A DNA stretch of 64,000 nt, taken from Diplonema papillatum (Eukaryota > Euglenozoa > Diplonemea > Diplonemida > Diplonemidae). The stretch spans positions 236,597 to 300,596 of the forward strand of contig JAPJBO010000191.1 of the NCBI GenBank assembly GCA_030068145.1, written 5' to 3'. Shown one piece after another: positions 9,012 to 64,000 of the stretch; within the stretch, counting starts at the first letter, position 1, and each line of letters begins with the position of its first letter. Below the pieces are notes generated by a model, which saw nothing but the letters and a program-made list of their open reading frames with translations, was not told the origin of the DNA and made no database searches. Position numbers and translations under genes: made by a program.

Positions 9012-9285
9012 CAGTTATTTGGGTTCGAATGCAAAGAATCTGTGGCGATACTCTGCATCGTCGGCGTCGCGGTTATCTCTTCGCACGTGATGTGTCATGC
9101 TTTCGCCTCTTCAGCTCGTCTTGATCGTCGCGCTCAGGCGCGCGTTTGGTGCCTCGTTTCTCCTTCGATGGCTCGTCCAGGTGCATCGGTTGCGCGTCGA
9201 TAGTTGCTTCCTTACGGCGGCGCTTGGGCGATGACCGTGTCGTCGTCGGTGGTGTTGCCGAGGTTGATCGTTGCTTCTTCGTCTT
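9012..9285 (-). mobile_element. 5'-truncated LINE 3'-end fragment
   Basis: Matches the 3' end of the LINE at 36179-38106 (minus strand) for about 250 bp, starting from the shared 3' terminus (complement of TTCGAATGCAAAGAATCTG). It covers the 3' UTR and the Arg/Lys-rich C-terminal codons. Too short and mutated to code. Confidence 0.75.
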
Positions 9286-31384: not shown

Positions 31385-32016
31385 TGAATCCAAATTCAGT
31401 TAGAACCGGTAGTCAACGTCTGATGCCGAACCCCAAATCTAATTAGAATCGGTACTCAACGTCCAATTTCCGATCCTGAATTTAATTAGAATTGGTAGTC
31501 AACGTCCAATTTCCGATTCCAAATTTAAATAGAATTGGTAGTCAACGTTCAGGTTTGGCTCCAAATTTAATTAAAATTGGTAGTCAACGTCTAGGTTCGG
31601 ATCCACAACCAATTAGACTTGGTAGTCAACGTCTGATGCCAAATCCAAAATTTAATTAGAATTGCTAGGCAACGTCCAGTTTCGGATCCCGAATTTAATT
31701 ACAATTGGTAGTCAACGTCCAGTTTCGGATTCCAAAATTAATTACAATCCGTAGTCAACGTCTGATGTCGTATCCAAAATTTAATTAGAAGTGGTAGTCA
31801 ACGTCCAAATTCGGATCCCAAATTTAATTAGAATTGGTAGTCAACGTCCAACTTCCGATTCTGAATTTAATTAGAATTGGTAGTCAACGTCTAATGTCGG
31901 ATCCCAAATTTAATTAGAAGTGGTAGTCAACGTCTATTGTCGGATCCAAATTTAATTAGAATTGGTAGTCAACGTCCAATTTTGAATCCAAATTTAATTA
32001 GAATTGGTAGTCAACG
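31385..32016 (+). repeat. 42-bp satellite, left part
   Basis: About 15 units with the core AATTGGTAGTCAACG. Units are more diverged than in the right part. Array broken at 32017 by element C. Confidence 0.9.
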
Positions 32017-32457
32017 CTGAGCCAATTCACCTACCCCCTGATCGAGTGTAATCGAGCGTAATCGAGCGTAATCGAGTGTAATCGAGCGTAATCGAGCGTA
32101 ATAGAGTGTAGTAGAGTGTAGTAGAGCGTTGTAGAGTGTGATCGAGATTGACACTAGTATTTTGGGTTCGACCACTGGTGGACCCCTGACTGGCCCATGG
32201 GCGACCATGTTGACCACTGTCTGGCCCCAGAAGTGCCAAGCATAAGCATACGAGGGACGGAAACCGCAGGCAAGTGGGCGATGTGCATATGAGACCGGAA
32301 GCTTTCGGGGACTGCAGGCGAGTTGGTGGCGAAAAGGGACAAAGATCTTCGAGCGACTGTGAGCAGCCTAGCAAGACGGGATGATGAACGATGATGAAAA
32401 AAGAAGAAGCGCTAGGCCGCTCGAAAGCACACGAAATCCGCACCTTGCGTTGCAGCA

Positions 32458-33489
32458 CTACAGCAGAAAGACGAGCTTCTTCCTCGGCTCTTGGCACTCC
32501 TCTGCCTTCCTCTTCACCAGGACAGTCCCTGGCGGGTCAGCATCCGGTAGCTCCACCGGCTGGTCAGCATCCGGTTGCTCCACCGGCGGGTCAGCATCCG
32601 GTAGCTCCACCGGCGGGTCAGCATCCGGTAGCTCCCCCGGCGGGTCAGCATCCGGTAGCTCCGAGGCCCTGTCTTCGGCTGTGCTCGTGCCTGCAGGCTT
32701 CGTCGGCTTCGGCTTCTTCCAGATGTCGAAAAGAGATCTGTAGCTGGACAGATCCTCTTTCGCGGCAGCGGCTCGCCTTTCTTCCTCTCGTCGCGCTTGA
32801 GCCCCAACTCGAGAGTCTTGCAAATGAGACCCTCGCTTCTTCTCGACCGCAGCCACCGCGGTCTTCTCCAGCAGAGCGGCGCCCTTTTCACAGCCGCTTA
32901 TGTGGGCTTCGTAGGGGGCTAGCCTGAGCTTGTCCTTGTCCCCCTCCTTGGCGACGAACACCACCTTTGAGCATCCCACGCAAGATACGGTGGGCGAGAT
33001 GCCTTTACCGACCTTGAAGGCCGGTTGCAGGTCGGCGCCGGTTAACTTAGCGGCTAGCTGGGCCGCTGTGTTCGCTTGCTTGCCTGCCGCCCGCTTCTCG
33101 GTTGCGTCCAGCACGACAATAAGCTGTCGTGCGTCCGCTCTGGCTGCTGCGAACAAGTCCGCCGGCCCAACGACCTCGCGGATGCCGGTGTCATCGTCGT
33201 CGAGGCGCGCGGCGGATTTCGGCAGCGTGTACCGAACGGCGGTGGGGGCTAGGGAGACAGTAAAGCCCTCCCTTCGCGCGATCGGCACCGCTGCGTCTCG
33301 TGCCTTTTTGACGTACTGCGCAAGGTCGTCACCCCCCTGCTCAACGTACAAAACGGCCTCTGCGGCCGCTGTTCGGTCCTTTTTGGTAAGGAGCTTTTTT
33401 GTGCGCTCCCCCCAAATCACCTTCATGGTGAAGCTGATCTCATTCTCGCGCGGCATCTTAGAATTCAAACCCCCTGCAATAAAGTTCAC
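32458..33489 (-). CDS. Element C ORF2: putative zinc-binding protein
   Basis: 343 codons on the minus strand, downstream of the 724-codon ORF (gap about 300 bp) and read in the same direction. A second in-frame ATG at codon 12 (MPRENE) could be the real start. Seen: an Ala/Arg/Lys-rich N-terminal region; a possible C2HC zinc cluster (C170, C173, H196, C200); a charged helical stretch (about 210-240); five copies of a 9-residue repeat close to ELPDADPPV (about 277-322); and a basic end. Role unknown. Its position inside the TIRs suggests a partner of the presumed transposase, such as a DNA-binding accessory protein; that is inference. Confidence 0.65.
   Translation of the reverse strand: MNFIAGGLNSKMPRENEISFTMKVIWGERTKKLLTKKDRTAAAEAVLYVEQGGDDLAQYVKKARDAAVPIARREGFTVSLAPTAVRYTLPKSAARLDDDDTGIREVVGPADLFAAARADARQLIVVLDATEKRAAGKQANTAAQLAAKLTGADLQPAFKVGKGISPTVSCVGCSKVVFVAKEGDKDKLRLAPYEAHISGCEKGAALLEKTAVAAVEKKRGSHLQDSRVGAQARREEERRAAAAKEDLSSYRSLFDIWKKPKPTKPAGTSTAEDRASELPDADPPGELPDADPPVELPDADPPVEQPDADQPVELPDADPPGTVLVKRKAEECQEPRKKLVFLL
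32540..32665 (-). repeat. 27-bp coding VNTR in element C ORF2
   Basis: Four to five units of 27 bp (plus strand CGGGTCAGCATCCGGTAGCT) code the ELPDADPPV repeat. Confidence 0.85.
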
Positions 33490-33785
33490 AATGAAAGATT
33501 ATCAATGCAGCACGAAGCGAAGCACAACCAGATCACACGCTTGAACGCACACAACATTCGAGACAAGGCATCGAATGCACGACAGCCACTGATAGAGAAC
33601 GACAAGAACGCAAGAGAGATGGGACAAACATATGACGGCATGCGTTTTCGTAGAGTCCGTACAGGCCAGATGGTTTATGTAAGAGCAGCAAGAATGAGGA
33701 CGTCGTCTGAATGAAAATGAGCCTGCTGACCGCAAACAAAATTACTTGAGCAGAGGAACGAGAAGCTAAAGTGACCCATGGTTAA

Positions 33786-35960
33786 TCAGGAGTCAGCGCT
33801 TGACGAATCGTCGGCGCTGTCGGACTCGTCGGACTCGTCAGAATTGTCGGACTCGTCGGAATTGTCGGACCCATTGGACGAGGTACTACTGCCTGACTTG
33901 TTCGATGATTTCCCAGCCTTAACCGTAGGGTTCTTTTTCCGACGTTTCACAGAGTGCTTTCCCCCGGGCTTCTCCGGACGCTTTCGCCCGACCTTGCCGT
34001 AGGTAGTCGGCAGCTTGAAGTCGGACTTGTCGAAGGCGATGATGGCTTCGAGAAGGTCGCTCATTTTGCCCTTTTTGGGAAGGCGTCGCTTCATGCTTTG
34101 ACTCAATACGCATGCGCGAGTGCCGTTTTCAGCAATCTCCTTCGGGGTCAACTGCTCGATTGCCTCCAAGCGTGTCTTCGCGATCTCTTCCCTTGCATCG
34201 CGCTTGCGCTGGCTTTCATCAGCAAGATTCTGTTTTCGCTGGGTGTGTGCTTCGAACTCGTCTGCCAGGCGGTGGGACCTTTCAATGCAGTTTTCCCATG
34301 AACGGTACACCGTATCACAAAGAGTCGAAACGGCGCAGTCCCGAAGCAGCCACTCGCTGATCTCAGGTTCGTTTCCTCCTCGAATAACAGCTATACCCCT
34401 GAGTACCTCATCGGTGACAGTCTGGTTCTTGCAGTCTTCAACAGTCTGCTTCACCACACCTACAGGGGTTTCCGTTAAATTCGGATTGCAGTTCGGGGGT
34501 GCGTTGGCTGCATTCGACATGTTGATGTACTTGTCGAATTCTAGGCGCTTGAAATGCCGCACGTATTTCATTACGTGCCCAACCAGAACTTCGGCTTCCT
34601 CGGAGACTGCAGTACACTCAATTTCTTGGGGTATGTCGGACTGTCGATGGGGAGCGAGGGCGTCTTTTAAAGCTGCTGCGTATCCAGATAGCTTTGCACC
34701 AGGCTTGTCCTCGACAAGGAAAACATCTTCGAGTTCCACAACACCGAACTTCAGCTTCGACTTGGATGCGGTTTCCACCACTCGGATCTGCAACGGGACG
34801 ACGCATCCGAACCAGTCCTTCTTGCCCTGCACGACCAATTTCTGAAGATCGTGGTCACCCACATTCTTGCAGAGGCAACACAGGATGCTGCACCACGCCT
34901 CCTTGACGGTGCCGAGCTGGTCAAGATGCCAAAGCAAGTGCGTCAGAGGATAGCAGAGCGACGTGAACAGCAAGCGGAGGACGCGGAGCTTCGGAAGGAA
35001 CGACGTGCCCACGAGGGCCTCATACAGCTTGAGGAACCGGTTTGGCACACGCTTCTTTGCTATTGGGCTGGACGCGTACAGCAGGACTTGCCGCGTGGAA
35101 AGATAAAGCCGCGCCCACTCGGCAAGAGGTTTTCCCCGAATCTCTTCTGAAAGGCTGTAAGCTCCGGCCGTCAGTGTTGAAAACCGACCGGCTTTGACTG
35201 GTGCCCAAAACACGCCTGCTGGGCTCACGCCAGCGTTTTCTTCCAGCCAGTGGTGGAAGGCATCGTTTCCTGCGATGAAATCATACGCCAATGGAATGAG
35301 TGATCGCAAAGGAAGGTCGGTCGCCAGACATTTTTGGACGGCTTTGTCAGCAAGGTGCAGGCGATGCACGGGCTCCATGATGACCTCGTCGACGGCCCCA
35401 CAGGCGTACAACTCACTAGCCGTCGTGAAGAGGCCTCTGTCTGTAACAACCTTCTTCATCCTTGGGAGCAGTGCATCGCCAGGGAGATCGAACCCCAAGG
35501 CAAGGAGCGACTCTTGCAGCTTCTGAAAGTAGTCCAGCACGTACTGGAGATACTTCGTCGTCGTTGCTGGATCCTTCTGCCGCACAAGTGCTGCAAGCAC
35601 AAGCCGCGTCCTCCACCTCTGCTCCATCGTGTCCAGGTACGAGAACGTCAGGCAGAGGATATCCTTGCTCCCCGGAAGCTCTCCTGCATCCCCGGCAATG
35701 ACGAAGTCACCACCCCCAAGCCGGAGCAGAAACTCCATGTCACCGAGGACAAGGTGCCTACCAAGCGCTCGGCGAACAGCCCTATCGCCTGGAACTGGCC
35801 CGCACGGAATGCCGAAAGGCCCAAGTACTAGCTGCGCTAAATTGAATATATGCGAGCTAATGCGAGATACTGGTACCCGAGCCCGTATGCACTCGACAAC
35901 CTGCTTCCGCAAGTCAGCCCGAACTTCCTGGTCTCCAGCTGCACGGCCTGTCTCGGGCAT
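33786..35960 (-). CDS. Element C ORF1: putative transposase, unassigned family
   Basis: 724 codons, ATG at 35960, TAA at 33786. It is the largest ORF of element C, so the transposase is expected here. Weak support for an RNase H-like DDE core: a strand-like stretch ending in D91 (FVIAGDAGE); then D174 in VVTDRG about 80 residues on; then a helix with VHRLHLADKAV (H199-V208) that resembles the hAT pattern of D followed by C/H-x-L-x-L. The third acidic residue could not be placed. The C-terminus has a basic nuclear-localisation-like stretch (SVKRRKKNP) and a Ser/Asp/Glu tail. The 5-bp TSD and CTGAG ends do not fit classical hAT elements. The frame is intact, so the copy may be young. Confidence 0.65.
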   Translation of the reverse strand: MPETGRAAGDQEVRADLRKQVVECIRARVPVSRISSHIFNLAQLVLGPFGIPCGPVPGDRAVRRALGRHLVLGDMEFLLRLGGGDFVIAGDAGELPGSKDILCLTFSYLDTMEQRWRTRLVLAALVRQKDPATTTKYLQYVLDYFQKLQESLLALGFDLPGDALLPRMKKVVTDRGLFTTASELYACGAVDEVIMEPVHRLHLADKAVQKCLATDLPLRSLIPLAYDFIAGNDAFHHWLEENAGVSPAGVFWAPVKAGRFSTLTAGAYSLSEEIRGKPLAEWARLYLSTRQVLLYASSPIAKKRVPNRFLKLYEALVGTSFLPKLRVLRLLFTSLCYPLTHLLWHLDQLGTVKEAWCSILCCLCKNVGDHDLQKLVVQGKKDWFGCVVPLQIRVVETASKSKLKFGVVELEDVFLVEDKPGAKLSGYAAALKDALAPHRQSDIPQEIECTAVSEEAEVLVGHVMKYVRHFKRLEFDKYINMSNAANAPPNCNPNLTETPVGVVKQTVEDCKNQTVTDEVLRGIAVIRGGNEPEISEWLLRDCAVSTLCDTVYRSWENCIERSHRLADEFEAHTQRKQNLADESQRKRDAREEIAKTRLEAIEQLTPKEIAENGTRACVLSQSMKRRLPKKGKMSDLLEAIIAFDKSDFKLPTTYGKVGRKRPEKPGGKHSVKRRKKNPTVKAGKSSNKSGSSTSSNGSDNSDESDNSDESDESDSADDSSSADS

Positions 35961-36178
35961 TTTTTCAGACTAATATTCTTGTTTTTATTCCGATTTCAAT
36001 ATCCTGTCATCAGCACCTTTTTAGCCCCGGAAGAAGGTGCGTTAGTGGGTACGTTGAACCGACCAATCAAGATTGCCTGAGTGTTACGCCGTTAATCAAT
36101 TACTGCAGTACCCCCCCAATTCACCCAAAAGTTGATCGAGTGTAATCGAGCGTAATCGAGCGTAATCGAGTGTAATCG

Positions 36179-38106
36179 TTTGGATTAGAATGCAAAGAAT
36201 CTGTGGCGATAATCTGCATCGCCGACGGCGCGGTTATCTCTTCGCACGTGATGTGTCATGCTTTCGCCTCTTTAGCTCGTCTTGATCGTCGCGCTCAGGC
36301 GCGCGTTTGGTGCTTCGCTTCTTCTTCGATTGCTCGTCGAGGTTCATCGGTTGCGCGTCGATTTCTGCTTCTTCCCAGCGCCTGGGCGATGGTCGTGGCG
36401 CATCGACGCGTCCTTTGCGTCTTTTCGGTACCGGCTCCGCCGCGGAGTCCGATTGCCGCTTCTTCGCTGGCGTTGGCGCCGTCTTCCCGACCTTCGCTGC
36501 TGATGTCGGCGTTGATGTTGCGGGTTCTCGCTCGTCTTCCTCTGCTTCCGGCAGAACGAGCACCACGTTCTCACGTTTCGCCTGTCTCGGCGCTGGCGCG
36601 GGACCCTCCGGCTCCGCCTTCCTCTTCTTCGCCGTTGTTTCTTCACCTCTCGCCACGGCCGCCCGGTGGTGCCCTTTCCTGCAGCAGTGCCCGGGTCTCC
36701 TACTCCTCAGGTCGGCGTGTTTCTTACAGCCGTCGCACGTCGGCATGCCATGATCGAGGCATCGGTGGTGATGGTTGCGACAGCACTCCGCTGTCGTCTT
36801 ACACGTGGCGCACTGCGTCATCCGGTGCTCGGCACACATTTTTACGGCTAGGCCATCACCCTCCCTGTGATGGGCCTGGCAGCACCACGCCACCGACTTG
36901 CCCCGGCGCTTACACACGTCGCACTTCACCTTTTGGTGCCCGGGGCACACCCGCTCACCCCACTTCTCGTGTCGGGGAATCCCTTCCGGCACGAGCCACG
37001 GATCCCCTCCGACGACAGCCGACTTCTTCCCTTTCCTCTTCTCCGTAGTGTCATCGAAGGCCGCCCATCTCGCCGCACGCTCCGCCCTTTCTCTTCCGTA
37101 CGTCGGGAAAAGGTCCATCCCCCACGCCTCGCCGGTGAACGCATGCCGGCTCGCCTTCAGCTGCGTCTCCAAGATTCCCATCGTCTCCTCGCCGCCGCGG
37201 AAAATTGGCCTCATCTCGTAGCCCGTGAGGCATGGGGGGGCCCCTACCGTTCTCAATGAACCTATCTTCTCCAGCTTTCTACCCGGCAGAAGCGGCCCCA
37301 CCCCTTTCCGCTCAAGCGCTTCCCCGATCGTTTTCAGCATCCGCGCCAACATTCTCGCACGGATACACAGCGGCGTCCCACCTGTCGTCGCCACTAAACT
37401 GCCCGGTAGATCGAGCCCGGTGTACACTTCGAAGTCTACTGCGAGCTCTGCCGTCGAGACGTCACCCGCTACCGACCAGCACATCCCATCCAGCCAATAC
37501 TGCAGCGCCCGGAACCACCTCTCTCCTGCTACCGCCGTGAAGGTCCCCGGTCCAGCGATCGCTTCGAAATTCAGCCGGCGCGGGGGGCAGTCGTCAGGGT
37601 GCAGTTGTCTCCAGGGGTGGCCGACTGCCCGGTCTCTTCCTTCTCTCTCCAGCCGTCGTCTCTCTTGCATGACTTCCGCCATGAATGTGTGCAGCACTTC
37701 GATGTTGATCCGACTTCCCTTCGGCAGAATCCCGTGTTCTTGCAGGCACGGAGGCCAAGTCGAGCGATCTGCGTCAACAATTTCGGCATACTGCTGTTGC
37801 ATTCGGATTCGTTCATACGCCCGGCACTGCCACCAAATGTGGCCCAGAGTTTCTTCCGTCGCCTCGTCACAGCGTCTGCACAGCCCGTCACCTCCCCACA
37901 GCTTGGCAGCATGTGATTCCGTCATCACCGACCCTGCTACGACCTCGGCAACGTCCCGCGCGGCCGTCAGCGTTGTCGACGCCTTCAGCCCGTAGGCATT
38001 CGTCGCGGTGTAGTCGACACCCGCCCGTACCCCTCCGAAGTTTGTGCGCCTCTTCTCGAGCTCCCCTAGTCGCCAGCCGTGAATCGCCTTTCTCAGGGTG
38101 TGCCCA
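36179..38106 (-). mobile_element. 5'-truncated LINE inside element C
   Basis: 1.9 kb, minus strand. Flanked by GAGTGTAATCG at 36168-36178 and 38107-38117, a probable 11-bp TSD, though the site lies in a repeat. The 3' terminus ends CTAATCCAAA, as in the 46-bp copy at 19268-19313. It holds the C-terminal part of a LINE polyprotein. Related 3' fragments occur at 9.0 and 56.6-57.4 kb. Confidence 0.85.
36234..38106 (-). CDS. LINE polyprotein C-terminal part with Cys/His clusters
   Basis: Open frame ending at 36234. The frame continues upstream through element C's end to 38201, but that part is not LINE sequence. Seen (numbering from the upstream ATG at 38201): a post-RT zinc-knuckle-like motif C108-x2-C111-x9-H121-x4-C126 as in zf-RVT regions of non-LTR elements; a block with ELAVDFEVYTG (251-261) shared with the LINE at 49.5 kb; then three Cys/His clusters of the form C-x2-H-x4-C-x2-C...CC-x3-HH; and a basic, nuclear-signal-like tail. 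RT and endonuclease are missing because of 5' truncation. The clusters probably bind zinc and nucleic acid (inference). Confidence 0.75.
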
Positions 38107-38184
38107 GAGTGTAATCGAGTGTAATCGACGCGTAATCGAGCTAAAGTCATTTTCAGGGGGGCTAGGTGAATTGGCTCAGCAACG

Positions 38185-40137
38185 TTCAATTTTGAATCCA
38201 AATTTAATTAGAATTGGTAGTCAACGTTCAATTTTGAATCCAAATTTAATTAGAATTGGTAGTCAACGTTCGATTTTGAATCCAAATTTAATTAGAATTG
38301 GTAGTCAACGTTCAATTTTGAATCCAAATTTAATTAGAATTGGTAGTCAACGTTCAATTTTGATCCCAAATTTAATTAGAATTGGTAGTCAACGTCCAAT
38401 TTCCGATCTCCAAATTTAATTAGAATTGGTAGTCAACGTTCAATTTTGAATCCAAATTTAATTAGAATTGGTAGTCAACGTCCGATTTCGAATCCCAAAT
38501 TTAATTAGAATTGGTAGTCAACGTCCAATTTCCGATCTCAAATTTAATTAGAATTGGTAGTCAACGTCTAATGTCGGATCCCAAATTTAATTAGAAGTGG
38601 TAGTCAACGTCTATTGTCGGATCCAAATTTAATTAGAATTGGTAGTCAACGTCCAATTTCCGATCTCAAATTTAATTAGAATTGGTAGTCAACGTTCAAT
38701 TTTGAATCCAAATTTAATTAGAATTGGTAGTCAACGTTCGATTTCCGATCTCAAATTTAATTAGAATTGGTAGTCAACGTCCAATTTCCGATCTCAAATT
38801 TAATTAGAATTGGTAGTCAACGTCTAATGTCGGATCCCAAATTTAATTAGAAGTGGTAGTCAACGTCTATTGTCGGATCCAAATTTAATTAGAATTGGTA
38901 GTCAACGTCCAATTTTGAATCCAAATTTAATTAGAATTGGTAGTCAACGTTCAATTTTGAATCCAAATTTAATTAGAATTGGTAGTCAACGTTCGATTTT
39001 GAACCCAAATTTAATTAGAATTGGTAGTCAACGTTCGATTTCCGATCTCAAATTTAATTAGAATTGGTAGTCAACGTTCAATTTTGAATCCAAATTTAAT
39101 TAGAATTGGTAGTCAACGTCCAATTTCCGATCTCAAATTTAATTAGAATTGGTAGTCAACGTTCAATTTTGAATCCAAATTTAATTAGAATTGGTAGTCA
39201 ACGTTCAATTTCCGATCTCAAATTTAATTAGAATTGGTAGTCAACGTCCAATTTCCGATCTCAAATTTAATTAGAATTGGTAGTCAACGTTCAATTTTGA
39301 ATCCAAATTTAATTAGAATTGGTAGTCAACGTTCGATTTTGAATCCAAATTTAATTAGAATTGGTAGTCAACGTTCAATTTTGAATCCAAATTTAATTAG
39401 AATTGGTAGTCAACGTTCGATTTTGAATCCAAATTTAATTAGAATTGGTAGTCAACGTCCAATTTCCGATCTCAAATTTAATTAGAATTGGTAGTCAACG
39501 TTCAATTTTGAATCCAAATTTAATTAGAATTGGTAGTCAACGTTCGATTTTGAATCCAAATTTAATTAGAATTGGTAGTCAACGTCCAATTTCCGATCTC
39601 AAATTTAATTAGAATTGGTAGTCAACGTCCAATTTCCGATCCCAAATTTAATTAGAATTGGTAGTCAACGTCCAATTTCGGATCCCAAATTTAATTAGAA
39701 TTGGTAATCAACGTTCGATTTTGAATCCAAACTTAATTAGAATTGGTAGTCAACGTCCAACTTCCAATCCCAAACTTAATTAGAGTTGGTAGTCAACGTT
39801 CAATTTTGATTCCAAATTTAATTAGAATTGGTAGTCAACGTCCAATTTCGGATCCCAAATTTAATTAGAATTGGTAATCAACGTTCGATTTTGAATTCAA
39901 ACTTAATTAGAATTGGTAGTCAACGTCCAACTTCCGATCCCAAACTTAATTAGAGTTGGTAGTCAACGTTCAATTTTGATTCCAAATTTAATTAGAATTG
40001 GTAGTCAACGTCCAATTTCGGATCCCAAATTTAATTAGAATTGGTAATCAACGTTCGATTTTGAATCCAAATTTAATTAGAATTGGTAGTCAACGTTCAA
40101 TTTCCGATCCCAAATTTAATTAGACTTGGTAGTCAAC
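38185..40137 (+). repeat. 42-bp satellite, right part
   Basis: About 46 units. The core AATTTAATTAGAATTGGTAG followed by TCAACG is nearly constant, while the following 16 bp occurs in a few versions (TTCAATTTTGAATCC, CCAATTTCCGATCTC, TCTAATGTCGGATCC). Blocks of units recur in order, so it grew by multi-unit duplication. Period 42 keeps one frame open (NLIRIGSQRSIL-type repeats), an artefact. Confidence 0.95.
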
Positions 40138-40540
40138 GTCTCGCCTCCCACCACCCCCTTTGGCCCTCCGCCCCTGGCCCTCCTGCCTCCTCTTTCCCCG
40201 CCTCCGTTATACTCTTCCTGCCCCATGGCTTCGCCATGGCTTTCGCCGTGACTTCGCCATGTCTTCGCCATGGCTTCGTCCCTCACCCCCGCTGATCCCG
40301 GTTGGTAGTGACCCGGCCTTACCCCAACCCCCAGCCCAAAATTAAGTCAATTTTTTTTTTTTCGCGCTCGGGGTGGCCCCGAGCCCCAGACCCATATATA
40401 AATCACTGCCGCCGCACATAGGGGGAAAGGTTTTTTTCCCTCGAACCTTAAGCGCCCACACGTGGACCACACGTATTTTCTCTGAGGCCGAAAACGGAGC
40501 GTAAGCCCTGCCGGCACCATACACGATTTCGTATTCGCAA

Positions 40541-48988: not shown

Positions 48989-51376
48989 ATGTTGCGCACG
49001 TCCGCCCGATTCATCAGACCCGCCGGGGCACGAGCATACGCCATCCCGGTGAACAACGTGTGCAGAGAATGGAGGTGCAACGTCGACAACGAAGAGACCG
49101 CCGAGAAGTTGGACAAGGTCCTGGGCTCCATGCAGTCGAAGATCCCATCCAAGAATGTCCAGAGGTTGGTCTGCAAAGCCGAGTGGGACTACAAGGTCTG
49201 TACAATTGCCGGAGAACGTCGCAACTCTGCGAGGGGGTTAGCTTCTATATCCACATCTGGACTGTCAGTCCAAATGTGGAAAAGGGGAAAAAGAAGAAAA
49301 AAATGGCACCACACCATCTCAGGGCCCAGCATTGTCGCGAAGATACTTCGATTCAGCCGTTACCCACTTTAAGCCCTGAACTTAAACACACACACACACA
49401 CACGGGGAGCCATTGTCAAACAAGGCTACAGTTCCGGACAGCAAGAAGGAGCGTCAGCTGTGACGTGAGGAAGCCAACGGCCTGGGCCATACTTCGCAAC
49501 AGGGGTTACCCATACATGAATCCTAACACACACACACACATTGCGTGTACTAAAGCGGCTACACCTTTTCTTCGTCGAGGTCCTAACTCGACGTCAGGAA
49601 GCAGACGGCCTGCTTGACAGGTCCGCCAGGCATCACAGGACCGTGGACTACCCGCGTGGGTGGAAGCCATCAGAACCACACAGACTCACGGTCCCTGCCA
49701 TTGCACCTTCCGCCGTCGGAACGAAGTGGAAATATGGCCAAGAGATGTGGATGGCATTTACCGACTGGCTGCAGCAGACGAAGTGGGCCCCCCCAGGGCA
49801 CGATGAGCTGGGAACCAGTTTCATCGAACTGGCAGTGGATCTCGAGCTGTACACAGGACGGCGACTCCCTGACCTGAAGAGTAGGTTCTACTCAGCTCCT
49901 CCACAAGCACCAACAGGCAAGGCAACGGCAGCCCGCGCTACGTTACCGGCCCGGGAAATGGGAGACAGCAGGCTCCTGGTTTATTTCGATGGCGGGGCGA
50001 GAGCGAATGGGACCGCCTTCGCCGTTGCCGGGGCGGGGGCAGTCGTGTACCGCGATGGAGTGAAAGTGGCAGAAGTGGTCCTGCCACTGCCGACCGTGCG
50101 CAGCAACAACGTAGCAGAGTACGAAGGACTGCTAGCGGGCCTGCACCTGCTGGGGGATGCAGGCGAAGCGGAAGGAGAGGAATGCACGGTGCGAGGCGAC
50201 TCGGCGCTGGTTGTCGGGCACCTCGCACGACGCATGGCATGTTCAGAGGAACTGAAGCCGTATCTGACGCGCGCGGCCTTGAAGGTGTCGTCCCTGCAGA
50301 GACGGCTGACACTGCACATTGAGCACGTTGCGCGGGAGCAGAACACAGACGCGGACGCGCTCAGCAACGCCGCCATGGACCTGGTGCAACGCCAAAGGCC
50401 CACCCGGCAGCAACAAGAGACCATGCTGGCAAACTTCCGTCGGTCCGGTCTAGGAAAAGCGCTCAGCCTCATCGAAATGGGGAAGGCGTATGGGAAGGTG
50501 GTTGCACAGCCGTGGTTCTGCGGCCATGAATACTCCACCACCGTTTTGACATCTGTGGGAGGAACGGTTGTGCGGGGTGTTTCGAGGCGTGCACAGTTAT
50601 TGACCGCGACCGAGGATGTGATCATGAAGATACGCGAACACACACGAGAAAATCGGCCAGACCAACAAGAAAACAGCCCGTTCCCTCCGCACCTGGGATG
50701 GGCCGCAACTTTTTTGCCAGAGGAGGCCTATCCGGCAGGGTGGACGCAGGGAAAGCCGGATTGGAAGACGAAGGCTGAAGCGGCAGGAAGAAGCTCAAGC
50801 ACGGAACCGTGCGAAGGAGCCCCCCCGTTCGAGGCCCCAGAAGGCGCGGTGAATACCTCCCGCCCCGGAGTGGTTTGCTCGCATCACAGGAAGCCGCGAT
50901 GCAGGGAGTGCGTCAAAAAGCGCCTACCGGCGGAGACCTGCTGTCGCCTCAAGCAGCATCATCACGGATCGGATGGTCTAAGGCCGCGGATGCACTTTTG
51001 CACAGCACACAGACTAGGACGCTGCGGCGACTGCGTAGTAGCAAACGAAGCATTAGCCAGCTGCTGCCCGAAGCACCATGCAAACAGAAGAGCGAACAGA
51101 GACCCCCACTCCCAGCCCGAGGGTGCATCGGCCGTTACCTAGCCATAAATGAGCGTGGTCGTACTTTCGTAAAGGGAGGCACCACGTTAAAACGGGTCCG
51201 CAACACACACACACACACACACACAGGTCATCAGCACCGTCTCCATGCAAGAATTCGGCGAGTGGAAGGCGAACTCGTTTGAACCCGAGGCGTCCTTCAT
51301 GGACAAGTTGAAGGCCACACCGGGAGTCACAAACGTCAAGGCCCAGGCGTACGTAGTTGACCAGATCAAGAAGTAA
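48989..51376 (+). CDS. Small two-exon protein, probably mitochondrial
   Basis: Exon 1 48989-49195 (69 codons, donor gtctgt) and exon 2 51227-51376 (acceptor ...cacacag), in phase, 118 aa in total. The N-terminus (MLRTSARFIRPAGARAYA) is Arg/Ala/Ser-rich without acidic residues, as in mitochondrial presequences. The rest reads as a small alpha/beta protein: WRCNVDNEETAEKLDKVL, QRLVCKAEWDYKV, EFGEWKANSFEPEASF, then GVTNVKAQAYV. I do not know its function. The 2.0-kb intron contains a LINE and CA repeats. Joining the exons is supported by phase, good splice signals and the continuous alpha/beta pattern, not by a known homologue. Confidence 0.65.
49540..51205 (+). mobile_element. 5'-truncated LINE in the intron, between CA repeats
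   Basis: Sits between AC runs at 49526-49540 and 51203-51224. The 5' part (RT) is missing. Coding strand is the same as the host gene. The AC tracts on both sides suggest insertion into an AC microsatellite. Confidence 0.7.
49541..51142 (+). CDS. LINE polyprotein C-terminal part with RNase H
   Basis: 533-codon frame open from the truncation point (no ATG start) to TGA at 51140-51142. Order: a block with FIELAVDLELYTG (94-106) shared with the 36-38 kb LINE; an RNase H1-type domain (about 145-280) with its acidic residues D150 (YFDGGARANG), E193 (NNVAEYEG), D220 (VRGDS) and D272 (NTDADALSNAAM); a linker; then two Cys/His clusters (VCSHHRKPRCRECV...CC-x4-HHH; CTAHRLGRCGDC...CCPKHH). All four RNase H residues are intact. 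RT is absent through 5' truncation. Confidence 0.85.
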   Translation: MRVLKRLHLFFVEVLTRRQEADGLLDRSARHHRTVDYPRGWKPSEPHRLTVPAIAPSAVGTKWKYGQEMWMAFTDWLQQTKWAPPGHDELGTSFIELAVDLELYTGRRLPDLKSRFYSAPPQAPTGKATAARATLPAREMGDSRLLVYFDGGARANGTAFAVAGAGAVVYRDGVKVAEVVLPLPTVRSNNVAEYEGLLAGLHLLGDAGEAEGEECTVRGDSALVVGHLARRMACSEELKPYLTRAALKVSSLQRRLTLHIEHVAREQNTDADALSNAAMDLVQRQRPTRQQQETMLANFRRSGLGKALSLIEMGKAYGKVVAQPWFCGHEYSTTVLTSVGGTVVRGVSRRAQLLTATEDVIMKIREHTRENRPDQQENSPFPPHLGWAATFLPEEAYPAGWTQGKPDWKTKAEAAGRSSSTEPCEGAPPFEAPEGAVNTSRPGVVCSHHRKPRCRECVKKRLPAETCCRLKQHHHGSDGLRPRMHFCTAHRLGRCGDCVVANEALASCCPKHHANRRANRDPHSQPEGASAVT

Positions 51377-52171
51377 GAGTACCGCGACCTGGCTATCCCG
51401 GAGCAATACTTGCACCAAGCACCCTTTCTTAGCTTGCTGACCAACCACGCCCACATTTCTTTATAGTGACATTTGTACTGAAGGGAACATTTCCGGCAAC
51501 AACGTGTACATGAAAAGTTAATACAGGTACCCACACCCTGTACGCGCAAAGAACGAAAAAAAATTGCTGCCTCGTTTTCTTCATCATCACACTCATCCGT
51601 GCACAAGCCAACTCCGGACATGTTCCTCGCGCCGCTCCTTCGCCACGCCTTTTCATCTCTCGATGATATTGCGTTCGGCTAGTCCGCCCCTTATTTCCTT
51701 AAAAAACTGCTGGATAGCTCTGCTTGAGAGTCTCTCCACCGCAAAGAAGTCAGCGGGCGCGCGAGGTGCGGGTGGATACAACGTCGAAAGAGGGCAAATC
51801 CACTTTCGCTATTGCGCAAACAAAGTCGAACCTCGGGGCTCCGTCGCTTCACGTTTCTCCTCCCGAAAAAAAAACGTCTCTTGTGTTACTTTTTCACGTT
51901 CTCCTTTTTTCCAGGAACCGACGAACGAAGGGGCTGCGCTGCAGGTGTTCCGTCCTTGTTTGGTCCACCCGGATGAAGAACTTGCGGGGTGTCGATTCTC
52001 CGGGACCTTTGGGGTGGGACGTTTCTTCTGAAACAGAAGGCTGCTCTGCAGGAAATACTCGAGGAGGCTGCCGTTGCAAAGTCTCAAAGGAGAGGAGGGG
52101 TTGGTACTCCAGCTACCGACCCGGCCCGTCACGCGCGCACCCTACGGAGAGCCTACACGATTCCCGAAAGC
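51377..52171. other. No supported gene
   Basis: 3' flank of the small-protein gene, then short frames. Near 52040-52095 is a partial MITE-core end (GGAAATACTCGAGGAGGCTG). Confidence 0.35.
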
Positions 52172-55909: not shown

Positions 55910-58900
55910 ATGACGGAAGGTCAGTACCATGAGCCGTCGAAGGAGTTCGTGACGTTGCCGGGTACTCTGCAGCTGGACGCCGAAGAGCTGTCGAAGCAGA
56001 TCGACCGCATTCTGAAGGCGACGAACCCAAACGTGGGCGGAACGCACGGCGAGCACAAGGAGCACTACTTCTCGCACAAGAAGGATGAGCGGTGCTTCAA
56101 GCCGATCCCGACCATGGACCAGACCGCGTTCCACTTGGTCGTCAACGGCAACGCGATCGGCGCGAACGACACGGAGGCCATCAAGCAGCAGGCCGAGCAC
56201 GCGGCGAGGGTGAAGGCGCTGACGCTCGCCGAGGAGGCCGAAAAAAACCCCGAGCTCGTCGAGCAAGAGGGCGTCAGCACGAAGATCCTCAAGAACCAGT
56301 TCAACTTCACGGACCGCGCCAGCCAGACGTTCAACAACCCGCTGCGGCACAGGTCTGGCCCGGCGATCGTCCCGCCCCCTTTTTTGTATAAGCACCTGCT
56401 TTGTAGGAAATGCTTGAGGAGACTGCCAGTTGCGATAGATCAAAGGAGGTAAATGTGCTGCTGGAGGTAAATGCGCTGTAGCCCACACGAAACAGAGGTA
56501 AATCTGGGTTTAGTGGCGGGCGTAAGCGTTCAACAAAAAAAGACCCACTTTGTAGTTGTATTGTTTCCCCCTCTAGCCTCTTCCGCTCGTGATTGTAGCG
56601 TTCAGTCATCCACCTCTACCTTGCTCCTGCTGCTAACAGCATAATTGCCTGTGCTAGCCTACGATAGTTTGGATTAGAATCTGTGGCGATATGCATCGCC
56701 GGTGTCACGGTTATCTCTTCGCACGTGATGCGTCATGCTTTCGTCTTGATCGTCGCGTTCAGGCGCGCGTTTGGTGCTTCGCTTCTCCTTCGGCTGCTCG
56801 TCGCCTGTCATAGACACCAGCAGGCAGTGGCTCAATATCTCCCGTGTAACCACCACCCGTTCCCCCTCTCGTCACTCACCTCTACCTTGCTCCTGCTAAC
56901 AGCATAATTGCCTGTGATAGCCTACGATGGTTTTGGTTACAATGCAAATAATCTGTGGCGATAAGCATCGCCGGTGTCGGTTATCTCTTCGCACGTGATG
57001 TGCCATGCATGCTTTCGTCTTGATCGTCGCGTTCAGGCGCGCGTTTGGTGCTTCGCTTCTCCTTCGGCTGTCATAGACACCAGCAGGCAGTGGCTCAATA
57101 TCCCGTGTAACCACCGCCCGTTCCCCCTCTCGTCACTCACCTCTACCTTGCTCCTGCTAACAGCATAGTTGCCTGTGCTAGCCTACGATAGTTTAGGTTA
57201 GAATCTGTGGCGAAAAGCATCGCCGGTGTCACGGTTATCTCTTCGCGGGCGATGTGTCGTGCTTTCGTCTTGATCTATTGATGAGCGCGTTTGGTGCTTC
57301 GCTTCTCCTTCGGCTGCTCGTCGCCTGTCATGGACACCAGCAGGCAGTGGCTCAATATCACCACCCGTTCCCCCTCTCGTCACTCACCTCTACCTTGCTC
57401 CTGCTAACAGAGACGTAATCACGGAGCCGCCCCCGATCGTGCCGTTTTCGAGCAACGCGACACAGTGGGACATCTTCGACGCGTACCGAGAAGAGGAGGC
57501 GCAGCAGAAGGCCGCGCTGGGGAAGAAGACGAAGAGCAGCCGCGACGACAAAAAGCGGGACGAGCTGGTGTCCAGCGAGAACACCGAAGACATCCTCAAC
57601 AGCCAGCAGATGCTGCTGTCCCTCAAGATCATGGAGCGGATGGTCAACCAGAACAGCTGCCACGACATCACGGACGACTACAAGTACTGGGACGACATGG
57701 GCGACCCGTTCAAACCGGACTCGGGCACGCTGCTCCCGCTGTGGAAGTTCACCGCCGACGTCGCGCGGAAGAAGACGGTGACCTCAATCTGTTGGAACCC
57801 GAAGTACAACGACCTCTTCGCAGTGGGCTACGGGTCGTACGAGTTCCTGAAACAGGGAACAGGCGTCATCCTGTGCTGGTCGCTCAAGAACTGGTCCTAC
57901 CCCGAGTACTCTTTCACCACCGAATCAGGGGTCATGTGCATTGACTTCCACCAACAGCACGCTTCGGTGTGTCCCTTTATGTCTTCCGGTCTGACTGCTC
58001 AAGCTTTTGATAGCGTCTTTTGATTGGCTTTTGACAGGCCTATAGAAACCCGGCCTTTGGTCTGACTGATCAAGCTTTTGACAGGCCTATAGAAACCCGG
58101 CCTTTGGTCTGAGTGATCAAGCTTTTGACAGGCCTATAGAAACCCGGCCTTTGGTCTGACTGATCAAGCTTTTGACAGGCCTATAGAAACCCGGCCTTTG
58201 GTCTGACCGATTAAGCTTTTGACAGGCCTATAGAAACCCGGCCTTTGGTCTGCCTGATCAATCTTTTGACAGGCCTATAGAAACCCGGCCTTTGGTCTGA
58301 CTGATCAAGCTTTTGACAGGCCTATAGAAACCCGGCCTTTGGTCTGACTGATCAAGCTTTTGACAGGCCTATAGAAACCCGGCCTTTGGTCTGACCGATT
58401 AAGCTTTTGATCGGGCCTTTTCATTGGTCATGCACTTTGTCTCACCTAGGGAAAACCAGAATACGGCCTTCGGTCTGACTGCTCAAGCTTTTGATAGAGA
58501 CTATTAGAGTCTTTTGATTGGTCACCCACTTTGCCTCACCTGTAGAAAACGAGAAACAGGCCTTTGGTCTGACTGATCAAGCGCGCCTCCGGAGCGACTT
58601 ACGCCCGCCGTAGCAGTGCGAAGAGAAGTGAGGAGACCGGAAACTCCCCGGAGAGATGGTCCCTGCACTCTAACTCGTCTCTCTCTCTCTCTCAAGCTTT
58701 TGACAGACCTATAGAAACCCAGAAACCGGCCTTTGGTCTGACTGATCAAGCTTTTGATAGAGACTATTAGAGTCTTTTGATTGGTCACCCACTTTGCCTC
58801 ACCTGTAGAAAACGAGAAACCGGCCTTTGGTCTGACTGCTCAAGCTTTTGATAGAGACTAATAGAGTCTTTTGATTGGTCACCCACTTTGCCTCACCTAT

Positions 58901-60904: not shown

Positions 60905-60914
60905 CCTGACTTTC

Positions 60915-61265
60915 AAGGCAGTGCATGCTAATCCATGTGGTGCATGTACTTAAAAGAACTCAATGCTTAACGGCTTATCACGTGGGCGGCCCTGAGATTA
61001 CCCCCTCACTTTATCTTTAGCCATACTTCAACTATCTTCGCGATCCGGTGTTTACCGTGAAAGCTTCAAGTTTCTTTGAACGGGAAAAACACGCAGTCTT
61101 TTAATCCCGAGGTTTGTTTATCCCGCAATCGAACCATGAACGATTAAGATTTGAACGCATCTCCAACTCTTACCACTCATCGGTTTCAGGGACTTTTAGC
61201 CCTCTTTTCAAAGTTCTTTGCATCTTTCCATCACTGTACTTGTTCGCTATCGGCCTCCGGGAGAT
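60915..61265 (+). repeat. Dispersed repeats E (copy 2) and P (copy 2)
   Basis: 60915-61040 matches 53395-53570, and 61165-61265 matches 20993-21090. In between, GGGAAAAACACGCAGTCTTT matches about 19787-19810. These modules may be parts of one longer degenerate element. Confidence 0.55.
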
Positions 61266-61399
61266 ATTTAGCCTTAGCAGAGGGATACCTGCCGATTAGC
61301 TCAGCATTCCCAAACTGAGCGACTCGTGCTAGCAAGGAGTTAACCAACATGGCTCGTCGAGGAAATACGGGACTGGTCTAAATACGGCTACGCCGAACG

Positions 61400-61426
61400 C
61401 CCCCCCCCCCCCCCCCCCCCCCCCCC
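61400..61426 (+). repeat. Poly-C tract of about 27 nt
   Basis: Uninterrupted C run just before the Penelope-like element. The length may be imprecise for assembly reasons. Confidence 0.8.
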
Positions 61427-61576
61427 GTTGTTTTCGTTTCCCAGCGACACGGAGAGAGGGAAAGGAAGAGAAACGCTGCGACAAAGGTCACCCCAGACCC
61501 CAAGCGGCCCCCAAAACAAAGAAGCCCTGCGAGAAAGGTCTTTCCAGACCCCAAGCAGCCCCAGAACAGAGGAACC

Positions 61577-62446
61577 GTGGAACGACTCAACACCCGGTTC
61601 ACAACGATCGACAAAAGGAGCGCGAACAAAAGAGGCCGCAAAAAGAAAAACCCAGAGCACAAGCACGAAAACGCCGCCAAGAAAAATCGGAAGAACGACC
61701 ACGTGACTCTGAGGCAAAAAAACAAAACGAAAAAAACGAAAAAAACCAAAAAAACAAAAAAAAACAATAAAAGTGCACGCGCCAACAGAAAAGAACGGCG
61801 AAAACAAAAAACAAACCGGCCCAAATCTGACACTCGTTTCCTCGCCGCTTTTGTCCACACGCGCCGCCACCCTGACGACGACGACGACGATCACGGAAGC
61901 CGAAGAAAAAGCGCGATCGAAATCTTCTGGAAGCGATACGGCACAAAAGTGTCGAATGGGCGGAACAAATGCGGAACCGACCGAAGCGACGTCGCCGACA
62001 ACACGACGGGAGTGATCTACGTACTTCTGAACGAAGGGGGCACCGTCCTCTACGTGGGTCAGACGTCGAAGACGGCCGAGGTGCGAAACAGCAAGCACTG
62101 GGAAAATCGGAACTCAAAGGGCAACCGTGTGTCGCAACAATTGCGAAAGCGAGGCCGGAAGCTCTACGCGTGTCCGATACAGAATGTTCCGAAACGGCTG
62201 TACGTTCAGCCCGCTGACTTCCCGCGCGTTGCTCTCCCTATCGAAGATTTCTGGATCAAATGGCTAAACCCGCCATTGAACATGACAAATCGGCGCCAGG
62301 GAGAGAGGGTCAACCGCAAGGCTGCAAAGAAGAAGAAGAGGCAACGTCCACCGCAACGCCTCCGCAAACGACGCACCGACGGCAACGTCTGGCACCGCAT
62401 AAACGGTCCAACATTGACACCTCCCCGGGCTTCTGTTCTGGGTTGA
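61577..62446 (+). CDS. GIY-YIG endonuclease domain of the Penelope-like element
   Basis: Open frame of 289 codons with no ATG at its start. The first 90 residues are Lys/Arg/Asn-rich. The GIY-YIG fold spans about 145-232: GVIYVLL (GIY strand), LYVGQTSK (YIG strand; V for I), an Arg/His-containing helix (VRNSKHW), and the catalytic Glu region IEDFWIKWLNPPLNM, which matches the family's E-x3-I-x3-NPPLN end. Metal-dependent single-strand nicking to prime reverse transcription is the known role. No Cys zinc motif is visible between the two signature strands. A Lys/Arg-rich linker follows before the frame ends at TGA. Confidence 0.85.
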   Translation: MERLNTRFTTIDKRSANKRGRKKKNPEHKHENAAKKNRKNDHVTLRQKNKTKKTKKTKKTKKNNKSARANRKERRKQKTNRPKSDTRFLAAFVHTRRHPDDDDDDHGSRRKSAIEIFWKRYGTKVSNGRNKCGTDRSDVADNTTGVIYVLLNEGGTVLYVGQTSKTAEVRNSKHWENRNSKGNRVSQQLRKRGRKLYACPIQNVPKRLYVQPADFPRVALPIEDFWIKWLNPPLNMTNRRQGERVNRKAAKKKKRQRPPQRLRKRRTDGNVWHRINGPTLTPPRASVLG

Positions 62447-62781
62447 GGAAACAATTGGACCACCTGCTGACACTCCCACAGGACCGGTTGGGAACCTACG
62501 ACATGTCAACATGGCATCCCAATCGCGCCCTCCGCCTACGCACGTGGCTGAGAACCTTCGTTCAAGGAAAAGACGTCACAGACAAAGTACGAATCCTTGA
62601 ACGACTCCTCAGTGCGCGCATCCGCAACAGAACCGAGAAACCGGCGGCCCCCCCACGACGGTATTTCAAGCTGACGCATCATCACCCGGCACAAGACCGG
62701 ACAGCAATTGCCGGCGTCCTGTCACGCGCACGGGTTCGCGAAACGTGCCCCAACCGGCCGTCCTCAAAAACCTCATGGTGA
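62447..62781 (+). pseudogene. Linker between GIY-YIG and RT, frame-shifted
   Basis: Continues in another frame (to TGA at about 62781) with HPNRALRLRTWLRTFV and ILERLLSARI-type helices. Then broken until 62872. Probably one protein originally; mutations or sequence errors separate the frames. Confidence 0.6.
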
Positions 62782-62871
62782 GCAACCGCCTGAAGCCACT
62801 TTGGTAACCCTCGTCAGCAACGTCACCGAAGTAAGTTACGAAGCGAATCAACCGACTAGCTCAGGTTCGGT

Positions 62872-63525
62872 TTGCCCATGCATGCAGCATATGACACCAC
62901 ACCGCCCGCTTTAGGACTTGCAACGGATCTGAAGACTGACGAAGCCCTCCTTTCACTTTTTCGAAAAGGACGAAAATACCGGGTCGCGAGTAGTCCGATG
63001 ACTATGTACGACTCGATAAGACACGACGTCGAAGAATTCGTGAACTCGAATTTCCCGAAGGCGAGCGAGGACGAGAAGACCAGATTTTCAACAACTCTGG
63101 TCGAAGAGTTCGACGCCGTCCTTGGAACTCTCAACGCGCACACCGACGAACCTCAACTCCGAGACGCCTTACGCACCCTGAAGAAGCTCCAGGAGCACCT
63201 CGTGTTTCTCCCTGTAGATAAGACGTCCCATGACTTCGGGTTTATCTGCAAGGAAAAATACAAGGAGCTCTTACGGGACGAATTACAACAGAGCTCAACG
63301 TACCAGGAAGTTGGCGAGTCGATTGATGACGTGCTCGAACGACACCGTGACTTCAACAAGTCACACAAGTTCGTACACGCCGACAACCTACCGTACCTTT
63401 ACGGCATCCCGAAACTCCACAAACCCGAACCACGGATGCGGTACATTGCCGGCGTGTCGGAAACGTTGAGAAGAAAGACGAACAGAAGGACCGAGACGAA
63501 AAAGGCCGCGACAAGAAACGAATGA
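62872..63525 (+). CDS. Penelope-type reverse transcriptase, N-terminal part
   Basis: 217 codons. Penelope RT marks: LKTDEALLSLFRKGRKYRVA (the 'L..GL.F.P'-like entry block), FLPVDKTSHDFGF (fingers, Lys/Asp pair), LPYLYGIPKLHKP (conserved 'YGLPKIHK' block), then MRYIAGVSE ('RPIVS' block). The frame is lost after this block and coding resumes in another frame at about 63480. Confidence 0.85.
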   Translation: MPMHAAYDTTPPALGLATDLKTDEALLSLFRKGRKYRVASSPMTMYDSIRHDVEEFVNSNFPKASEDEKTRFSTTLVEEFDAVLGTLNAHTDEPQLRDALRTLKKLQEHLVFLPVDKTSHDFGFICKEKYKELLRDELQQSSTYQEVGESIDDVLERHRDFNKSHKFVHADNLPYLYGIPKLHKPEPRMRYIAGVSETLRRKTNRRTETKKAATRNE

Positions 63526-64000
63526 AGACACGTGCATCCACAACCCCTGCACACCAAGAAGCCTCCGGTTTGCTGAAGCTGGTGCTAGCTACGCTCCGAA
63601 GCAAGGACGAAGCGGCGTTTTCGCAAACGGGGATACGTCGTTTCTTCGTCGTGGAGTCGGTCGATGACGTAGCAGTACACATAAAGACGAACTACGCTCG
63701 ACTGCGCAAAAAAGCGCCACGAACCTTCGACTTCAAAGAGATGTACACGAAGATTCCGCAGAAGCAGATTGTTGACTATGTTATGTCTGCGGTTGCAGAG
63801 GCTTTCGAGTACATGAAGTCCGAAAAAGGAGCGAACGTAGAAGCCCAGCGCGCCAAACACCGCTTCGAATTTGGGAAACCAGACGAATCGAACACGACCT
63901 CCTACAATGTCGAAGAGATTCGAGCACTGGTCAGCTTCATTGTTGGTAACACCTTCGTCACCAACGGTGGAACATGCTACCAGCAGGTATCCGGAATCCC
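63480..64000 (+). CDS. Penelope-type reverse transcriptase, continuing past the window
   Basis: Open in the third frame from about 63480 to the edge. TFDFKEMYTKIP (about 63726-63761) is the RT motif with the first catalytic aspartate (F-D-x-K-x-M-Y-T-x-I-P). The final residues YQQVSGIP are the start of the conserved Q-x-x-GIPMG motif. The YxDD-type motif and the thumb lie beyond the window. Confidence 0.88.

What the first reader, a model, noticed from the sequence alone, without database searches (positions are those of the whole stretch)
32017..38179. Candidate undescribed DNA transposon family (element C)
A 6.16-kb unit (4.2 kb without the LINE) with about 24-bp TIRs starting CTGAG, a 5-bp TSD and two same-strand ORFs (724 and 343 codons), both intact. 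ORF1 has only a weak RNase H-like pattern (D91, D174, VHRLHLADKAV). ORF2 has a possible C2HC zinc site. TSD length, TIR start and two-gene content do not match a superfamily I know. Sub-terminal TGTAATCGAG repeats are direct, not mirrored, which could make the two ends functionally different.
Basis: partly seen in the sequence, partly recalled or inferred. Interest (0 to 1): 0.85.

Follow-up and report, generated by a model that had tools for sequence, protein, structure and literature searches.

The report
Two-gene DNA transposon with lopsided ends
An unnamed eukaryotic genome carries what looks like a jumping gene with two protein genes and repeats that point the same way at both ends; that it jumped in is well supported, but whether it belongs to a known or a new transposon group could not be settled here.

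Summary
The insertion is real. Terminal inverted repeats (22 of 23 bases complementary) bound 32017-38179. Joining the flanks with one CAACG removed restores the 42-bp minisatellite in phase. A retroelement fragment (36179-38106) later landed in the right end. Two long ORFs (724 codons; 343 codons, 332 from the first ATG) lie on the minus strand.

Two corrections. The duplication is not uniquely 5 bp: AAC (3 bp) with termini GCTGAG fits equally. And 5-bp duplications are known (hAT5, TDD-4/5), so they do not set it apart.

The direct repeats are real: all 12 copies with at most 1 mismatch in the 64-kb window lie in the element, on one strand. A likely reason: the right end holds a 63-bp, 90% identical direct copy of the left end.

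Pfam, NCBIfam, PHROGs and the PDB named neither ORF; structure models were too poor to use. ORF1 motif order looks hAT-like, but similarity to Hermes segments was not significant. Best reading: an autonomous cut-and-paste transposon, ORF1 transposase plus ORF2 end-binding protein. Copy number and superfamily stay open: no eukaryotic genome was available.

The parts
31386..32016 (.). left flank: 42/43-bp minisatellite, ends in CAACG
32012..32016 (.). target site duplication, left copy CAACG (or AAC 32013-32015 in the 3-bp register)
32017..32038 (+). left terminal inverted repeat CTGAGCCAATTCACCTACCCCC
32039..32146 (+). left subterminal array of about ten 10-bp repeats of TGTAATCGAG type (9 with at most 2 mismatches), all in + orientation
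32458..33489 (-). ORF2, 343 codons from GTG (332 from the first ATG, 33456); C-x2-C-x22-H-x3-C pattern, ELPDADPP-type repeats, basic C-terminus; proposed end-binding protein
   Evidence: function inferred
33786..35960 (-). ORF1, 724 codons; D91, D174, H199; basic NLS-like stretch and acidic/serine C-terminus; proposed DDE transposase
   Evidence: function inferred
36116..36178 (+). direct copy (90% over 63 bp) of the left-end block 32022-32084, inside the right end
36168..36178 (.). GAGTGTAATCG, proposed target duplication of the inserted retroelement, left copy
   Evidence: sequence
36179..38106 (-). inserted, probably 5'-truncated LINE-like fragment, not part of the transposon
   Evidence: class inferred
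38107..38141 (+). remaining right subterminal repeats (first 11 bp = second copy of the retroelement's duplication)
38158..38179 (-). right terminal inverted repeat, GGGGCTAGGTGAATTGGCTCAG on +
38180..38184 (.). target site duplication, right copy CAACG (or AAC 38181-38183 in the 3-bp register)
38180..40139 (.). right flank: continuation of the 42-bp minisatellite

Best explanation
Element C is an apparently complete two-gene cut-and-paste DNA transposon of a eukaryote, about 4.2 kb without its retroelement, inserted in a 42-bp minisatellite. Inferred mechanism: ORF1 is a DDE/RNase H-type transposase with a hAT-like layout. It cuts at the TIRs and makes staggered cuts in the target, which leaves the 3- or 5-bp duplication. 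ORF2 is a small protein with a zinc-site pattern that binds the 10-bp direct repeats (about 10 at the left end, about 7 at the right before the retroelement landed), as TNPA does for En/Spm or the BED domain for Hermes. Because the repeats at both ends point the same way, the two ends present opposite polarity relative to their TIRs, which could force left-right pairing. Shown: insertion, TIRs, duplication, repeats, intact ORFs. Inferred: both protein functions and the pairing role. The first two rivals below are finer placements that overlap with this statement.
For: TIRs and empty site. An open frame far longer than in shuffles. ORF1 motif order D91 - 83 residues - D174 - 25 residues - H199, with VVTDRG at D174; the Hermes segment printed has FVTDRG at the matching place. 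The weak secondary-structure call of the ORF1 fragment is four strands then a helix, with D91 in the second strand. Lower GC3 in ORF1/ORF2 (0.64/0.70) than in the two host-like genes measured (0.90, 0.86). Repeats at up to 1 mismatch confined to the element and to one strand. Precedents: TNPA recognises subterminal repeats (PMC2613891, passages); the Hermes BED domain binds subterminal repeats, differently at the two ends (PMC10368747, passages).
Against: No credible profile or sequence match for either ORF. ORF1 against the Hermes RNase H segment is not better than shuffles (BLOSUM62: p 0.60 for all of ORF1, 0.13 for residues 60-220; BLOSUM45: 0.30 and 0.37). With BLOSUM45 the best local match to all of ORF1 lies elsewhere (residues 404-443), not at D174. 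ORF1 gives no PF05699 match, although a typed hAT C-terminal consensus finds it at 1.4e-30. Both models put D174 at the end of a helix, not of a strand as an RNase H fold would have it, though both are too poor to rely on (pLDDT 34 and 45); Foldseek gave nothing at E <= 0.001. No third acidic catalytic residue can be named. The zinc site of ORF2 is a pattern only. Only one copy seen.
Confidence: 0.6

Rival explanations
1. A divergent member of the hAT superfamily (for instance of a 5-bp-duplication type such as hAT5) whose similarity is too low for the profile libraries used here. This is a finer placement of the best explanation.
For: Motif order and the VTDRG motif as in the Hermes segment; 5-bp duplications known in hAT5 (PMC12730594, passages); Hermes uses subterminal repeats and a BED zinc site (PMC10368747, passages).
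Against: No PF05699, DUF659 or other hAT profile match; alignment to Hermes segments not significant; termini CTGAG or GCTGAG do not fit the hAT start YARNG (consensus recalled, not from a call).
Confidence: 0.4
2. A member of another known superfamily (MULE, Transib/CMC, Ginger2, Harbinger-like or other) not recognised by sequence. Also a finer placement of the best explanation.
For: Two proteins and subterminal repeats resemble En/Spm; 5-bp duplication fits TDD-4/5 and Transib (recalled); a 3-bp register would fit EnSpm or Harbinger duplication lengths.
Against: No profile match of any of these families; termini are not CAC..GTG; TDD-4/5 have TIRs of 260-297 bp against about 23 here.
Confidence: 0.2
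3. A non-autonomous element: the TIRs are mobilised in trans and ORF1/ORF2 are captured or unrelated genes.
For: Neither ORF has a demonstrated transposase domain; cargo genes are known in transposons (recalled).
Against: The two ORFs fill most of the 4.2-kb element and are intact, and ORF1 keeps an ordered D...D...H pattern.
Confidence: 0.15
4. No transposon: the inverted repeats and CAACG are chance or rearrangement in a repeat array.
For: The flank is a tandem array, so CAACG recurs about every 42 bp.
Against: A 22-of-23 inverted repeat exactly at both array edges, in-phase restoration of the 42-bp unit, and subterminal repeats confined to the unit.
Confidence: 0.03

Closest known systems
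hAT superfamily (Hermes; hAT5 group)
   Same: Order of D, D and H motifs with VTDRG; subterminal repeats and a CCHC-type site; ends that differ, as in Hermes (PMC10368747, passages); 5-bp duplication in hAT5 (PMC12730594, passages)
   Different: No significant sequence similarity, no detected Dimer_Tnp_hAT domain, other TIR start (hAT consensus recalled), zinc-site pattern on a separate ORF
En/Spm (CACTA), TNPD + TNPA
   Same: Two proteins; short subterminal repeats at both ends, recognised by TNPA (PMC2613891, passages)
   Different: TIR not CACTA, no CACTA transposase profile match
Ginger2 / TDD-4, TDD-5
   Same: 5-bp duplication in a protist DNA transposon (PMC2836005, passages)
   Different: TIRs of 260-297 bp there, about 23 bp here; no integrase profile match
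Transib
   Same: 5-bp duplication (recalled)
   Different: TIR start CACWRTG (recalled) not present; no Transib/RAG1 profile match

Membership tests
TIR (class II) DNA transposon | terminal inverted repeats at both borders | tested here: met
TIR (class II) DNA transposon | target site duplication and clean empty site | tested here: met
   phase restored; length 3 or 5 bp, ambiguous
TIR (class II) DNA transposon | recognisable DDE/D transposase | tested here: inconclusive
   no profile match; models too poor
TIR (class II) DNA transposon | multiple copies in the genome | not testable with these tools
   no genome held
hAT | C-terminal dimerisation domain PF05699 | tested here: not met
   no match at E up to 10; positive control by a typed consensus. 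A strongly diverged domain could be missed at this sensitivity
hAT | RNase H core similar to known hAT | tested here: inconclusive
   not above shuffles against one Hermes segment
hAT | TSD of 8 bp, or 5-7 bp in named groups (PMC12730594) | tested here: inconclusive
   5 bp is one of the possible registers
hAT | TIR start YARNG (recalled) | tested here: not met
   CTGAG or GCTGAG
En/Spm (CACTA) | termini CAC..GTG | tested here: not met
Ginger2 | integrase-like DDE core | tested here: inconclusive
   no Pfam integrase match for ORF1, no positive control run
Transib | TIR start CACWRTG (recalled) | tested here: not met
Transib | RAG1-like core | tested here: inconclusive
   no Pfam match, no positive control run

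The most novel reading that the evidence does not exclude
A superfamily-level new lineage of eukaryotic DNA transposons in which catalysis (ORF1) and end recognition (ORF2) are split into two genes, and the recognition arrays run in the same direction at both ends, so that left and right ends are functionally different by design; the right end arose in part by a direct copy of the left-end block.
Probability: 0.25. Interest if true: 0.65.

Novelty: new variant of a known kind. Interest (0 to 1): 0.45.

Why it matters
If ORF1 proves to lie outside the known superfamilies, it adds a branch to the DDE transposases and a compact two-gene system to study. Same-direction subterminal arrays at both ends would be a simple natural test of how a transposon tells its left end from its right, a question studied in Hermes (PMC10368747, passages). 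If it proves to be a diverged hAT element, it is still a useful outlying member with a detached zinc-site protein.

Tried and rejected
Profile libraries: Pfam (E up to 1 or 10), NCBIfam and PHROGs gave nothing credible for ORF1 or ORF2. The weak rows dropped were ACCA (0.38 and 0.12), Clathrin (0.12), Saf4_Yju2 (2.4 and 0.59) and the regulator Hpr (0.18), all below their cut-offs. PDB by sequence: two prefoldin rows (0.51, 0.88) for ORF1 (7), one phosphatase row (0.75) for ORF2 (20), none for ORF1 1-560 (21). Relatives: viral contigs with ORF1, the ORF1 core, ORF2 and the LINE ORF (14, 15, 16, 61), TIR and repeat patterns in viral contigs (24, 70, 71), genome contigs with ORF1 (23), plasmids with ORF1 (8): none confirmed; with single proteins these scans reach close relatives only, and they hold no eukaryotic genomes as such. 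A typed hAT consensus gave no confirmed hAT locus to build a profile from in viral contigs (35) or genome contigs (42). Structure: two AlphaFold2 jobs without alignment (19/32: pLDDT 34.1; 48/56: pLDDT 45.0, pTM 0.43). Foldseek of the second against the PDB: 0 matches at E <= 0.001, 749 at E <= 10, of which 50 are shown, mostly protein tyrosine phosphatases with TM about 0.2; taken as meaningless (60). hAT by pairwise alignment: 12 of 12 comparisons (8 with ORF1, 4 with ORF2) had p between 0.13 and 0.76. An attempt to place the host by a gene in 48990-51380 gave nothing. Considered and rejected: chance inverted repeat; repeats belonging to the LINE (the five other 3' ends printed lack them).

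Full report
Setting. The window is eukaryotic: a eukaryotic LSU rRNA fragment at 60906-61444, a STIMATE-family gene and a 5'-nucleotidase-like gene. No genome is held for it, so everything below rests on one copy.

The insertion. The two borders carry an inverted repeat of 23 nt, 96% complementary. Its first 17 bases, searched with up to 3 mismatches, occur nowhere else in the window. The reverse complement of the left 23-mer matches 21 of 23 at the right border and at most 13 of 23 elsewhere in 32040-40000. Both borders lie exactly at the edges of a 42-bp minisatellite. When the flanks are joined with one CAACG removed, the spacing of the unit anchor runs 43, 43, 42, 42, 42, 42, 42, 42, 42 through the junction. 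This is the signature of a clean insertion.

The duplication length is not fixed. CAACG begins with C and ends with G, so CAACG with termini CTGAG (5 bp) and AAC with termini GCTGAG (3 bp) describe the same letters; a 2-bp register also fits. Only further copies can decide.

The retroelement. 36179-38106 looks like a later insertion: its 3' end recurs at 9018-9242 (89%), 19272, 56676, 56927 and 57200 without the 10-bp repeats next to it, and it is flanked by GAGTGTAATCG on both sides (sequence). Its ORF has no Pfam match at E up to 1. Parts of it are weakly similar (about 34% identity) to the ORF at 49541-51142, which has an RNase H-type match. 'LINE' is therefore an inference.

The ends. TGTAATCGAG with at most 1 mismatch occurs 12 times on the + strand of the window, all inside the element (6 at the left end, 6 at the right), and 0 times on the - strand. 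At up to 2 mismatches, 19 of 27 + copies and 1 of 16 - copies are inside; of the 19, one lies in ORF1 and two in the retroelement. The right end holds a 63-bp block, 90% identical to and in the same orientation as the left end, including CCAATTCACC. Without the retroelement the right end reads CCAATTCACC, about seven direct repeats, then the inverted TIR. So the same-direction repeats are plausibly the trace of a direct duplication of the left end, and the right end carries a TIR core on both sides of its repeats.

The proteins. ORF1 (724 codons) and ORF2 (343 codons from GTG, 332 from ATG) are both on the minus strand. The longest open frame of 32017-36178, 727 codons, compares with at most 306 in 300 mononucleotide shuffles. 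GC3 is 0.64 and 0.70, against 0.90 and 0.86 in the two host-like genes measured. ORF1 has D91 (AGDAGE), D174 (VVTDRG) and H199 (VHRLHL), and a basic then acidic/serine-rich C-terminus; ORF2 has C170, C173, H196, C200 (translations). Pfam, NCBIfam, PHROGs and the PDB give no credible name for either.

Is ORF1 hAT? The order and spacing (83 and 25 residues) resemble Hermes, whose segment printed by the PDB search reads FVTDRG at the second aspartate. But the local alignment score is no better than shuffles (BLOSUM62 p 0.60 for all of ORF1, 0.13 for residues 60-220; BLOSUM45 0.30 and 0.37), and with BLOSUM45 the best match is elsewhere in ORF1. The hAT dimerisation domain, which a typed consensus finds at 1.4e-30, is not detected in ORF1. 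The resemblance is a lead, not membership. Structure prediction without an alignment failed (pLDDT 34.1 and 45.0). The second model's order of four strands and a helix would fit an RNase H start, but it and the first put D174 at the end of a helix, which would not; its Foldseek matches are meaningless.

How it likely works. Inference from anatomy and precedent: ORF1 cuts and joins; ORF2 binds the 10-bp arrays. In En/Spm, TNPA recognises subterminal repeats and both TNPA and TNPD are needed (PMC2613891, passages). In Hermes, BED domains with a CCHC zinc site bind subterminal repeats and the two ends are treated differently (PMC10368747, passages). Same-direction arrays would give the two ends opposite polarity relative to the TIR and could enforce left-right pairing. 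None of this is shown here.

Literature. 5-bp duplications are on record for hAT5 (PMC12730594, passages) and TDD-4/5 (PMC2836005, passages). Searches around hAT, 5-bp duplications, new superfamilies and subterminal repeats listed no paper that from title and abstract start describes this element; several listings were cut (for instance 20 of 205 and 15 of 134). Only passages of PMC12730594, PMC4455052, PMC10045372, PMC2836005, PMC12477816, PMC2613891 and PMC10368747 were seen. This is weak evidence of novelty.

Verdict. A real, apparently complete TIR transposon copy with an unusual end architecture; superfamily open. I put about 0.4 on diverged hAT, 0.2 on another known superfamily, 0.25 on a new lineage, and about 0.15 on a non-autonomous element or artefact; these odds are rounded. 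The first three are sub-cases of the best explanation, whose 0.6 also asks that the proposed roles of ORF1 and ORF2 hold.

Noticed in passing
60906-61444: Fragment of eukaryotic LSU rRNA on the minus strand (116.9 bits, model positions 24-664), near a run of 27 C and a retroelement; partial and apparently diverged.
   Followed up: partly
61577-64000: ORF with a GIY-YIG domain (E 7.4e-06) followed by ORFs that read by eye like a reverse transcriptase region (no Pfam RT match for 62872-63525); may be a Penelope-like element with the endonuclease upstream (recalled comparison).
   Followed up: partly
48990-51380: A small host-like gene (read by eye) whose probable intron carries a LINE-like ORF with an RNase H match (RVT_3, 5e-09) next to CA repeats.
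   Followed up: partly
36234-38201 and 49541-51142: Cys/His-rich stretches (and a second stretch) shared at about 34% identity by two LINE-like ORFs of the window, possibly a zinc motif of this retroelement group.
   Followed up: no
56611-57410: Tandem array of about 261-bp units containing the 3' end of the same LINE-like family.
   Followed up: no
33456-33484: Acceptor-like TTTATTGCAG just upstream of the first ATG of ORF2; ORF2 may have a spliced 5' part.
   Followed up: no
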